A DNA stretch of 33,690 bases from Verrucomicrobiales bacterium (lineage in GTDB: Bacteria; Verrucomicrobiota; Verrucomicrobiia; Methylacidiphilales; JAAUTS01): the NCBI GenBank assembly GCA_031266335.1, contig JAISBF010000138.1:1-33690 (forward strand). The letters run 5' to 3'. The notes under the pieces are model-generated. The model saw only the letters and a program-made list of their open reading frames with translations, made no database searches and was not told the origin of the DNA. The position numbers were made by a program, and so were the translations under genes. Shown here one piece after another: positions 27,761-31,405 of the stretch. Position 1 is the first letter of the stretch. Each line of letters starts with the position of its first letter.

Positions 27761-27856
27761 TGGTGCAAGTTTTTTGGGAACTGGCTCACTGGCGTTGAAT
27801 CAAGGTACATTGCTATAGATTGACTGTTGGCGTCCCGTCCGGCAAAGTGCCGGTTA

Positions 27857-28312
27857 GTGAAAGTTTCCAAAAAGAGCGAGTACGGCGCGCGGGCGTTGGT
27901 GGAAATCGCCATGCGTTCGCGCAATGGCGAGGACTGGCACCAGATTGCGCAGATTGCCGAGGCCAGCCGGATTCCGGAGAAGTTTTTGGAGCAAATTCTG
28001 CTGGTGTTGAAGAACGGCGGTGTTTTAAAAAGTCGTCGCGGGGTGGACGGCGGTTACGCGCTGAATGAGTTGCCGGAAAACATTCGCCTGGACCGGGTGG
28101 TCGGGTTGCTGGATGGCAATCCGGTCGGGAATGCCAAAAAGAGCCGGGCGGGCGACGCGGCGGATGCCGGGGCGCGGATTTATCACGAGTTGATTCAGCG
28201 GGCGCAAGAGGCGGCGCTGACAGTGTTGCGGCAGGTGTCGCTGAACGATTTGGTGGAGCAGGTGCGGAAGCAGCGCGTGGTGACGGGGGAATCGCTGGAG
28301 TATCAAATATGA
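27857..28312 (+). CDS. Rrf2 family transcriptional regulator lacking Fe-S cysteines
   Basis: A 151-residue DNA-binding regulator. The start VKVSKKSEYGARALVEIAM fits the Rrf2 N-terminus, followed by the winged helix IAQIAEASRIPEKFLEQILLVLKNGGVLKSRRGVDGGYAL. I chose the GTG at 27857. A TTG at 27827 would add ten residues unlike the family. The three cysteines that hold the cluster in IscR and NsrR are absent, so this is more like the cluster-free CymR type, which senses cysteine status. The stop overlaps the MoeB-rhodanese start by 4 bp (ATGA), so the regulator probably controls that sulfur-transfer gene. Confidence 0.9.
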   Translation: MKVSKKSEYGARALVEIAMRSRNGEDWHQIAQIAEASRIPEKFLEQILLVLKNGGVLKSRRGVDGGYALNELPENIRLDRVVGLLDGNPVGNAKKSRAGDAADAGARIYHELIQRAQEAALTVLRQVSLNDLVEQVRKQRVVTGESLEYQI

Positions 28313-29496
28313 GTTATCTGCCGGACATCGCCACGCGGGCCGCCCAGGTTGAGTTGACCAACGAGGAAATCAAGCGTTACAGCCGGCATTTGATCATGCC
28401 GGAGGTGACGATTGAGGGGCAGAAACGCCTGAAGGCGGCGCGGGTGTTGGTGGTCGGCACCGGCGGCCTGGGGTCGCCGCTGCTGGCGTATCTTGCGGCG
28501 GCGGGCGTGGGCACGATCGGGGTGGTGGATTTTGACACGGTGGATTATTCCAACTTGCAGCGGCAGATTTTGCACAAGACTTCCGGGGTCGGGCAGCCGA
28601 AGGTGGAGTCAGCGGCAGCGGCGATGCGGGACATCAATCCGCACATCACGGTCAACACCTATAATATGGCGTTGCGCGCGGAGAACGCGTTGGAGTTGAT
28701 TAAGCAGTACGACCTCGTGGTGGACGGCACGGACAACTTCGCCACGCGCTATCTCACCAACGACGCCTGCGCGCTGCTCGGCAAGCCGAATGTGTACGGC
28801 AGTATCTTTCGCTTCGACGGGCAAGTCACGGTGTTTTGGGCGGCGCGCGGGCCGTGTTACCGCTGTCTGTATCCGGAGCCGCCTGATCCGGGGCTGGTGC
28901 CGACTTGCGCCGAGGGCGGGGTGCTCGGCGTGCTGCCGGGCGTCATCGGCACCTTGCAGGCGATTGAGACGGTGAAGCTCATCGTCGGCGTTGGCGATTT
29001 GGCGGTGGGGCGGCTGGTGTTGTTTGACGCGCTGAAGCTGAAGATGCGCGAGTTGAAAATCCGCAAGGATCCGACTTGTCCGCTGTGCGGGGAGCACCCC
29101 ACCATCAGCGGGCTGGTGGATTACGATCAGTTTTGCGGCACCGCGCCGGTGGACGCGCCGGCGCGCAAGTTGCTGGCGCTGCCGGAACTCGCGCCGCTGA
29201 CGCTGAAGGCGCGGCTGGATCGGGGCGAGCCGGTGACGGTGCTGGATGTGCGCGAGCCGCACGAGTTCAAGATTTGCGCCGTACCGACGGCGAAATTAAT
29301 CCCGCTCGGCGAGTTGCCGCGGCGGTTGCACGAACTGGACAGCGCGGCGGAAATCGTGATTTATTGCAAGGGCGAAATCCGCACCGGGCAGGCGTTCCGT
29401 CTGTTGCGGCAGGCGGGGTTCGGGAAATTGCAGGCGCTGGAGGGCGGCATTGAGGGGTGGGCCGAGGAGGTTGACCCGGCGATGCCGATGTATTGA
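28309..29496 (+). CDS. moeB: MoeB/ThiF-like adenylyltransferase fused to rhodanese
   Basis: A 395-residue sulfur-carrier activating enzyme. The E1-like domain (1-270) has the ATP-binding GTGGLGSP (50-57), the R-x-Q-I-L region (85-88), D-N-F (142-144), zinc-binding C183xxC186 and C257xxC260, and a catalytic cysteine C200 in PTCAEGGVLG. A rhodanese domain (about 290-390) ends in the persulfide loop C353-KGEIRTG. The architecture is that of MOCS3/Uba4-like proteins, which adenylate and then thiocarboxylate MoaD, ThiS or CysO-type carriers. Which carrier it serves is open, since none is encoded here; MoeB is a family label. It is coupled to the upstream Rrf2 gene by a 4-bp overlap. Confidence 0.92.
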   Translation: MSYLPDIATRAAQVELTNEEIKRYSRHLIMPEVTIEGQKRLKAARVLVVGTGGLGSPLLAYLAAAGVGTIGVVDFDTVDYSNLQRQILHKTSGVGQPKVESAAAAMRDINPHITVNTYNMALRAENALELIKQYDLVVDGTDNFATRYLTNDACALLGKPNVYGSIFRFDGQVTVFWAARGPCYRCLYPEPPDPGLVPTCAEGGVLGVLPGVIGTLQAIETVKLIVGVGDLAVGRLVLFDALKLKMRELKIRKDPTCPLCGEHPTISGLVDYDQFCGTAPVDAPARKLLALPELAPLTLKARLDRGEPVTVLDVREPHEFKICAVPTAKLIPLGELPRRLHELDSAAEIVIYCKGEIRTGQAFRLLRQAGFGKLQALEGGIEGWAEEVDPAMPMY

Positions 29497-29524: not shown

Positions 29525-31405
29525 ATGAAACACATCCGGCCATTCAACTCGTTCCTGTGGGGCAATTCCATCGCGCTGTCGTGGCTGTGGGGGCTGGGGT
29601 TGTTTTTCTCGGTGCAGATGACCTTTTTGTTCGGCACGGCGGGGTTGCTGGGCTTCGCCCTCCTGAACGCGCTGGGCTTGTTCCTGTTCGGGTTCCTGAC
29701 GCAGAAAATCGCCCGGCGCGACAGCGGGGAAGAGTCGCTGGACCGTTTCTTCAAAAAGTGGTCGCGGCCGTTTCGGCTGAGCTTTTACCTGTATCAAGTG
29801 CTGGCCATCACGCTGACGGTGTTCGCGGTGGTGAATTATTTGCTGCTGCCGCTGCTGGCCTCGCGCTGGCCGGGCTGGGCGGAGCAAGGGAAGATTCTGC
29901 TGTTGATTTCGCTGGCGCTGGTGGTGTTGCTGGTACTGTCAGCGGCCTGTCTGGTGGGCGAGGAATTTCGCATCAAATCCCTCAAGTACGGCCATTTGTG
30001 CCAGGGCGCGCTGCTGGCGACGGCGGTGCTGCTGGTGTGGTTTGGCCTGCCGGCCGCGCCGGCTGACGGTGGCGCGGGAAGTCTGACACTGTCAGTGGCG
30101 CGCGAGCCGATGTTCTGGGGCTACCTGATCCCGATTCTGGTCGGGTTCCTGGTCGGGCCGTGGCTGGATTTGCAGCAATGGCAGCGCGCCATCCAGATTC
30201 ACCGGGAGCACACCAGCATCCGCCTGAGTTACTTTTTTGGCGCGACGTTGTTTTTCCTGCTGCTGGTATTTCACGGGCTGGTGGCGGAATTGGTGTTTAA
30301 TAGCGCGTGGTTCTCGACGGCGCTGATTACGCCGGCATTCGGCGGGTTGCAGTACGCCCACGACCTGGTGGTGCGCTACATGGAAACTTACCGCGACTAT
30401 CTGTCCTGGTGGGTGCCGTCGGGTTATTACCTGTTTCTCGGCCTGGGGGTGCTGACCACGCTGGACAGCGGGTACGTGGCGCTGAAGTGGTTTTTGACGG
30501 AAAATGTCAAGACCAGTCAGAACCCGTTGTTGTCGTTCATTCCGGCGGGCCTGGTGACCTCGCCGATTCCGACTTACATCTTTGCCGGCCTGTTCACCGT
30601 CTTTGCCGTGGTGGTGAAACTGGAAGTGGAATACTTCATGGTGTTTTACGCCTCGTTTTTCGTGGCCTACGCGACGCTGGGTATCGCCCGTTGTTTTGTG
30701 CCCAATTCACAGCACGCGCTGCCGCAGGTGAAGCTGTTTGCCATCGGCAGCCTGTCGGTGGTGGTGTTCGCCTGCGGTTATTTCATGCAGCTGGCGGCGC
30801 TGATGATGGCGGGATCGATTCTGCCGATGCTGTATGTCTGGTGGCTGGTGTTCAACACCGACCTGCTGCGCATCGTGACGGAGAAGGCCGGGGAGGTGAT
30901 CGACGCGGCGGCGGAAATTCCCGTGTTGCGCAAATTGTCACAGGCGACCCAGCGCGCCATCGGCGGCGAGACCAAGGAGGTCAGCACCGGCAGCCATTTC
31001 GAGGACAAATGGTTCGTGCATTCGTTCATGGCGACCTACGCGGACACCAACTCGGTCGGCAACGTGTACTTCGGTGTGTATGCGCTGTGGGTGGGCAAGG
31101 CGCGGGAGTTGTTTTTCAATTACGTGCTGCCGGGCTTCGATTTGAAGACCACGCCGTATTACATCCTGACACGTTCCTTCGAGCATAAATACATCACCGA
31201 GACGCGCGAGTTCGAGCGCATCAGCGTGAAAATCCGCGTGGCGGAATACAACCGCAAATTTGCCACGCTGGAACACCAGGTTTACGATTCCGCCGGTCAC
31301 TTGCTGGGCAAGGGGCGGCAACAGTTGATTTTTGTCGCCGCGCGGGATTACAAATTGCTGGACATCCCCGGCGAAGTCATCAAGGCGTTCATGCCCTATC
31401 TTTGA
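29525..31405 (+). CDS. Polytopic membrane protein fused to a hotdog thioesterase domain
   Basis: 626 residues. Residues 1 to ~450 form about 12 hydrophobic segments; GPWLDLQQWQRAIQIHREH near the middle is reminiscent of sodium:solute symporters, but that assignment is weak. After a short linker, residues ~493-626 form a 4HBT/hotdog domain. TYADTNSVGNVYFGVYALWV is the conserved helix-entry block, and DSAGHLLGKGRQQLIFVA is the last strand region. The V-G-N-V-Y wording is closest to the enediyne-type (CalE7-like) thioesterases I know. A 25-codon longer frame exists, but ATG 29525 with GGAG upstream gives a sensible membrane-protein start. It follows moeB by 28 bp and is likely co-transcribed. 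The joint role is unknown. Confidence 0.85.
   Translation: MKHIRPFNSFLWGNSIALSWLWGLGLFFSVQMTFLFGTAGLLGFALLNALGLFLFGFLTQKIARRDSGEESLDRFFKKWSRPFRLSFYLYQVLAITLTVFAVVNYLLLPLLASRWPGWAEQGKILLLISLALVVLLVLSAACLVGEEFRIKSLKYGHLCQGALLATAVLLVWFGLPAAPADGGAGSLTLSVAREPMFWGYLIPILVGFLVGPWLDLQQWQRAIQIHREHTSIRLSYFFGATLFFLLLVFHGLVAELVFNSAWFSTALITPAFGGLQYAHDLVVRYMETYRDYLSWWVPSGYYLFLGLGVLTTLDSGYVALKWFLTENVKTSQNPLLSFIPAGLVTSPIPTYIFAGLFTVFAVVVKLEVEYFMVFYASFFVAYATLGIARCFVPNSQHALPQVKLFAIGSLSVVVFACGYFMQLAALMMAGSILPMLYVWWLVFNTDLLRIVTEKAGEVIDAAAEIPVLRKLSQATQRAIGGETKEVSTGSHFEDKWFVHSFMATYADTNSVGNVYFGVYALWVGKARELFFNYVLPGFDLKTTPYYILTRSFEHKYITETREFERISVKIRVAEYNRKFATLEHQVYDSAGHLLGKGRQQLIFVAARDYKLLDIPGEVIKAFMPYL

What the first reader, a model, noticed from the sequence alone, without database searches (positions are those of the whole stretch)
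29525..31405. Membrane transporter-like domain fused to an enediyne-type hotdog thioesterase
About 450 residues of polytopic membrane protein are joined in one uninterrupted frame to a hotdog domain with the ADTNSVGNVYF block, a wording close to CalE7-like thioesterases of polyene-type synthases. I know of no described protein with this order. It could release an acyl or polyene product at the membrane, or hydrolyse a thioester whose product the membrane part exports. Its position behind Rrf2 and MoeB-rhodanese genes adds a sulfur-chemistry context.
Basis: partly seen in the sequence, partly recalled or inferred. Interest (0 to 1): 0.62.

Follow-up and report, generated by a model that had tools for sequence, protein, structure and literature searches.

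The report
Membrane transporter fused to thioesterase enzyme
A single bacterial protein joins a twelve-helix membrane transporter-like domain to an enzyme domain that cuts thioesters, and the same joined protein is kept in about a hundred genomes, so the two parts very probably work together, though what they act on is unknown.

Summary
The fusion is real. Window 29525-31405 encodes one 626-aa protein. It is not a sequencing error: full-length, uninterrupted relatives occur in dozens of genomes, nearly all Verrucomicrobiota, plus bee-gut Apibacter and the Methylorubrum extorquens AM1 megaplasmid. Residues 488-626 are a hotdog thioesterase, closest among solved structures to CalE7, DynE7, SgcE10 and EspE7; the Asn and Arg equivalent to CalE7 N19/R37 are invariant. 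Residues 1-444 match no Pfam family. Their AlphaFold model (pTM 0.87) has the LeuT fold, with broken TM1 and TM6 helices on invariant motifs. A variable linker joins the halves; both ends are predicted cytosolic.

A distant relative of the membrane half exists alone in seven Verrucomicrobiota genomes, always directly behind a gene for a probable different (DUF4442-type) hotdog protein, so the partnership may have arisen twice.

The sulfur neighbourhood is confined to close relatives. An enediyne/polyene role is not supported: the fusion persists in small genomes with little beyond ordinary fatty-acid synthase genes.

Best reading: thioester hydrolysis at the inner membrane face, coupled to movement or sensing of the released acid. 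Substrate and direction are unknown. The architecture appears undescribed.

The parts
29525..31405 (+). Whole gene: LeuT-fold membrane domain + linker + hotdog thioesterase, 626 aa
   Evidence: Open frame; full-length relatives across the phylum
29525..30856 (+). Membrane domain, residues 1-444, about 12 TM helices, LeuT fold, no Pfam family
   Evidence: AF2 model pLDDT 86, pTM 0.87; Foldseek to SGLT2, CHT1, SiaT, DUR3, SLC7; no Pfam hit
29582..29593 (+). Break in TM1 helix, residues 20-23 (W20, W22, G23, L24, G25 invariant)
   Evidence: DSSP of the model, invariant columns
30155..30169 (+). Break in TM6 helix, residues 211-215 (GPWLD, all but L214 invariant)
   Evidence: DSSP, invariant columns
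30455..30469 (+). TM8 motif TTLDS, residues 311-315, possible cation (Na2-like) site; inferred by position only
   Evidence: Conserved T311, T312, D314, S315; Na2 lies between core TM1 and TM8 in LeuT-fold proteins (PMC7918813)
30857..30985 (+). Variable cytosolic linker, residues 445-487
   Evidence: pLDDT <50 at 451-487; length and sequence vary between clades
30986..31402 (+). Hotdog thioesterase domain, residues 488-626
   Evidence: 4HBT_2 in 40/40 members; CalE7, DynE7, SgcE10, EspE7 by sequence and fold
31049..31051 (+). N509, equivalent of CalE7 N19
   Evidence: Alignment; invariant
31103..31105 (+). R527, equivalent of CalE7 R37
   Evidence: Alignment; invariant; PDB 9ccr is an EspE7 R35A mutant
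27827..28312 (+). Rrf2-type regulator, same strand; conserved beside the fusion only in close relatives
   Evidence: PF02082 E 4.4e-27
28309..29496 (+). MoeB/ThiF-rhodanese protein, ends 28 bases before the fusion; conserved there only in close relatives
   Evidence: PF00899 and PF00581

Best explanation
The protein is a two-domain membrane enzyme. The N-terminal half is a divergent LeuT-fold transporter-like domain with both termini in the cytosol; the C-terminal half is a cytosolic CalE7-like hotdog thioesterase on a flexible linker. The thioesterase most likely hydrolyses an acyl-CoA or acyl-ACP at the inner face of the membrane, and the free acid is then handed to the transporter half, which moves it across the membrane: a valve that frees CoA or ACP and removes or balances the acid. 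Shown: the fusion, its wide conservation, the hotdog family, invariant active-site residues. Supported by model: LeuT fold and cytosolic C-terminus. Inferred: catalytic activity, coupling, substrate, direction of transport, ion coupling.
For: Full-length conservation of one architecture in dozens of genomes and three phyla. Hotdog residues N509 and R527 invariant and aligned with CalE7 N19 and R37. LeuT-fold hits and broken TM1/TM6 on invariant motifs. An even number of membrane helices and about twice the K+R density on predicted inner loops (0.14 against 0.08) place the enzyme in the cytosol, where acyl-CoA and acyl-ACP are. A distant stand-alone form of the membrane half (hhalign E 3.6e-9) is encoded directly behind a DUF4442-like, probably hotdog, gene in 7 of 7 genomes, a second link between this membrane family and a hotdog enzyme.
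Against: No activity is shown. Many LeuT-fold transporters import, which fits poorly with exporting a freshly released acid. The DUF4442-like call for the partner gene is moderate (hhalign E 5e-4 against 0.2 for reversed controls; no Pfam hit). Genomic neighbours differ between clades and name no pathway.
Confidence: 0.42

Rival explanations
1. Transceptor: the membrane half senses (and may move) an extracellular solute and its conformation switches the thioesterase on or off, as the SLC5-type domain is thought to do for the kinase in CbrA.
For: SSS/SLC5 domains fused to cytosolic signalling domains are established (PMC7096432, PMC7918813). The layout is the same: transporter fold, linker, cytosolic effector.
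Against: No STAC domain was seen, and the linker is poorly conserved, which is unusual for tight allosteric coupling.
Confidence: 0.24
2. Scaffold: the membrane half has lost transport and only holds the thioesterase at the membrane, near lipid synthesis or a membrane-bound acyl carrier.
For: The stand-alone relatives lack the TM8 TTLDS motif, so ion coupling may be dispensable in part of the family.
Against: Many invariant residues within or at the membrane core are polar or charged (D215, R221, H250, D314, E369, R389), more than an anchor needs.
Confidence: 0.16
3. Polyene or aryl-polyene thioesterase that releases a conjugated product from an acyl carrier protein into the membrane.
For: The closest solved relatives are enediyne polyene thioesterases. 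The window's genome has KS and aryl-CoA-ligase fusion proteins; one Apibacter and one Spartobacterium have large KS frames.
Against: Fusion-bearing genomes of 1.3-1.5 Mb had no large synthase frame, and one examined showed FabD/G/F/H-type genes and one extra KS-like frame. No synthase gene is seen next to the fusion.
Confidence: 0.12
4. Assembly or annotation artefact joining two genes.
For: The window is a contig of an incomplete draft genome (222 contigs, 78% complete).
Against: Same open junction in the 40 aligned relatives, in Apibacter isolates and in the complete M. extorquens AM1 record.
Confidence: 0.01

Closest known systems
Enediyne polyene thioesterases CalE7, DynE7, SgcE10, EspE7 (hotdog fold)
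   Same: Hotdog fold; ADTNSVGNVYF-type block with Asn in place of the usual acidic residue, and the downstream Arg
   Different: Those are stand-alone soluble proteins of PKS clusters; here the domain is fused to a membrane protein and no PKS adjoins
Solute/sodium symporter (SSS/SLC5) and other LeuT-fold transporters (SGLT2, CHT1, SiaT, DUR3, SLC7)
   Same: LeuT fold with broken TM1 and TM6
   Different: No Pfam SSF hit; profile comparison with local SSF proteins fails; TM-scores only 0.4-0.6
SLC5-STAC histidine kinases (CbrA, CrbS)
   Same: Transporter-fold domain fused to a cytosolic effector
   Different: Effector is a thioesterase, not a kinase; no STAC domain seen
LplT-Aas lysophospholipid remodelling system
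   Same: Membrane transporter paired with a cytosolic acyl-chain enzyme (PMC11416262)
   Different: Different transporter superfamily (MFS, from memory) and opposite chemistry (acylation, not thioester hydrolysis for release)
YbgC/FadM and MenI hotdog acyl-CoA thioesterases
   Same: Superfamily-level profile matches
   Different: Scores far below curated cut-offs; the usual catalytic Asp position (from memory) is Asn

Membership tests
Hotdog 4HBT_2 thioesterase superfamily | Profile match over the curated cut-off | tested here: met
   PF13279 38 bits against 25.5; matched in 40/40 members
Hotdog 4HBT_2 thioesterase superfamily | Hotdog fold | tested here: met
   Foldseek to 2w3x, TMt about 0.8, rmsd about 2.5
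Enediyne polyene thioesterase (CalE7 type) | Asn and Arg active-site pair | tested here: met
   N509 and R527 aligned with CalE7 N19/R37 and invariant
Enediyne polyene thioesterase (CalE7 type) | Partner iterative type I PKS in the locus | tested here: not met
   None in the neighbourhoods; no large KS frame in most fusion genomes checked
Enediyne polyene thioesterase (CalE7 type) | Hydrolysis and decarboxylation of polyene beta-ketoacyl-ACP | not testable with these tools
   Needs an assay
LeuT-fold (APC superfamily) transporters | LeuT fold with broken TM1 and TM6 | tested here: met
   Model helices break at 20-23 and 215; the 50 best Foldseek hits are LeuT-fold proteins; the inverted repeat itself was not computed
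SSS/SLC5 family | Sequence match to SSF (PF00474) | tested here: not met
   No hit at E<=1 for 40 members; hhalign no better than reversed control; only DUR3 at E 0.012 with profile A1
SSS/SLC5 family | Na+-coupled transport | not testable with these tools
   TM8 TTLDS resembles the Na2/Na3 positions by eye only
MenI DHNA-CoA thioesterase | NCBIfam MenI score over cut-off | tested here: not met
   27.7 bits against 225
DUF4442 hotdog (partner gene in the split form) | Profile similarity | tested here: inconclusive
   hhalign E 5e-4 over about 149 columns against 0.2 reversed; 4 of 5 outrank 2000 shuffles; no Pfam hit

The most novel reading that the evidence does not exclude
A new class of transport protein in which hydrolysis of a thioester by a fused hotdog domain directly drives or gates the transport cycle of a LeuT-fold domain, found as a fusion in three phyla and as a two-gene pair with a different hotdog family in another branch.
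Probability: 0.12. Interest if true: 0.88.

Novelty: new variant of a known kind. Interest (0 to 1): 0.58.

Why it matters
The membrane half is a widespread LeuT-fold family without a Pfam entry, and its constant pairing with a hotdog protein, fused or adjacent, gives a concrete handle on its function. If transport and thioester cleavage are coupled, it would be a new way for a cell to release acids from CoA or ACP at the membrane. A copy in the laboratory strain Methylorubrum extorquens AM1 makes it testable now.

Tried and rejected
Sequencing-error or artefact reading: rejected by the relatives. Sulfur-operon reading: the context is clade-specific. Filing the membrane half as SSS: the marginal DUR3 hit was not reproduced with the membrane-half profile nor by hhalign to SSF proteins; only 14 SSF proteins were usable in that test. 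First attempts to link the upstream partner gene to DUF4442 failed because reference proteins were mis-extracted or too divergent; a better reference set, the third tried, gave a moderate result. Viral contigs: no relative. Plasmids: only M. extorquens AM1 holds the fusion; Streptomyces and Sinorhizobium hits cover only the thioesterase part, several beside PKS genes. Literature searches found no description of the fusion, in a library limited to open licences.

Full report
OBSERVATION. The window encodes one uninterrupted 626-codon frame at 29525-31405. A frame from TTG 29450 is 25 codons longer, but relatives align from about residue 3, so the ATG at 29525 is the likely start. Its own genome holds one copy.

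THE FUSION IS REAL. A scan of 84,980 species genomes gave 112 relatives, and the 80 best, the ones listed, match nearly end to end at 48-98% identity. Forty of these rows (39 relatives and the query) aligned over the full length without a stop. They are Verrucomicrobiota apart from three Apibacter genomes, where the protein is 66-68% identical, and a few records whose labels are probably binning errors. A search of 149 genomes of the Apibacter family found it in 5. In a tree the Apibacter copies fall within the clade of the window (100/100), which suggests transfer between gut bacteria. The complete megaplasmid of Methylorubrum extorquens AM1 encodes a 611-aa protein of the same order (34% identity over 69% of the query). 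Within the phylum it is patchy: 10 of 388 sampled genomes, yet 26 of 60 near relatives.

THE HOTDOG HALF. All 40 members match 4HBT_2. The nearest solved proteins are CalE7, DynE7, SgcE10, EspE7 and an Actinomadura thioesterase, by sequence and by fold. The position of N509 is acidic in most 4HBT enzymes (from memory) and Asn in the enediyne group; N509 and R527 are invariant and align with CalE7 N19 and R37. The residue roles are from memory, since the CalE7 paper is not held, but a deposited EspE7 R35A mutant points to the same Arg.

THE MEMBRANE HALF. No Pfam or NCBIfam family is met. The AlphaFold model from 78 sequences has pLDDT 86 and pTM 0.87. The best 50 Foldseek hits are LeuT-fold proteins such as SLC7, SGLT2, CHT1, SiaT, DUR3 and NKCC1, with TM-scores of about 0.4-0.6, so the fold is supported but no family is assigned. 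The helix breaks at residues 20-23 and 215 fall in the conserved motifs SW.WGLG and GPWLD, as expected for TM1 and TM6 of the fold. Sequence tests for SSS membership are negative or marginal. Twelve helices and the distribution of Lys and Arg put both ends in the cytosol; that analysis used helix limits that I set from the model.

LINKER. Residues 445-487 vary in length and sequence between clades while both flanks are conserved.

A SECOND PAIRING. Weak hits in the phylum survey led to stand-alone membrane proteins of 387-396 aa. They are homologous to the membrane half (hhalign E 3.6e-9 against 0.19 for a reversed control). In all seven genomes found, a gene for about 200 residues lies immediately upstream, overlapping by four bases or abutting (one is cut by the contig end). 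This protein has no Pfam match. Against eight DUF4442 proteins hhalign gives E 5e-4 over about 149 columns, reversed controls about 0.2, and four of five members outrank 2000 shuffled sequences. I read it as a probable DUF4442-type hotdog, not as proven. If right, this membrane family pairs with two different hotdog families.

SURROUNDINGS. In the window, L002 and L003, an Rrf2 regulator and a MoeB-rhodanese gene precede the fusion on the same strand; other clades have other neighbours. In Spartobacteria a GH75-like lipoprotein gene follows directly in 25 loci, median gap about 24 bases. No neighbour names a pathway.

POLYENE LINK. Ketosynthase surveys found frames over 1000 aa only in the window's genome, one Apibacter and one Spartobacterium among the genomes checked. 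One 1.5-Mb genome showed FabD, FabG, FabF and FabH-type genes and one further KS-like frame. Many of these genomes are incomplete. The window's genome has KS proteins fused to an aryl-CoA-ligase-like domain, so a polyene-like product is possible there but is unlikely to be the general role.

MECHANISM. The simplest reading is a cytosolic thioesterase tethered to, and working with, a transporter-fold domain: thioester cleavage at the membrane with the free acid moved or sensed. Sensing (as in CbrA), scaffolding and polyene release are the rivals. None has been tested experimentally.

NOVELTY. Each domain is of a known fold; the combination was not found in the papers searched, though that library is partial. 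I rate it a new variant of a known kind, with a membrane family that lacks a name.

Noticed in passing
L082:1737-3517 and L083-L086, L131-L137: Two-gene pair of a DUF4442-like protein and a LeuT-like membrane protein, neither with a Pfam family, overlapping by four bases or abutting in seven genomes.
   Followed up: partly
L090:11473-13308 (NC_012811, 658423-660237): The same transporter-thioesterase fusion on the Methylorubrum extorquens AM1 megaplasmid; the gene table searched here lists no gene under it.
   Followed up: partly
L187:396-3503 and L190:2042-3820 (own genome): Ketosynthase domains fused in one frame to a 4-coumarate-CoA-ligase-like domain, perhaps part of an aryl-polyene-like pathway.
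   Followed up: partly
L091:197-6435 (Sinorhizobium meliloti T073 psymA): A 1911-aa PKS-like protein followed by a CalE7-like thioesterase with overlapping frames, on a symbiosis plasmid.
   Followed up: no
L024:2598-3992 and 27 further loci: GH75-like lipoprotein gene found with the fusion in Spartobacteria, in 25 loci directly downstream with a median gap of about 24 bases.
   Followed up: partly
L004, L005, L019: Apibacter copies of the fusion nest inside the gut Verrucomicrobiota clade, suggesting horizontal transfer.
   Followed up: partly
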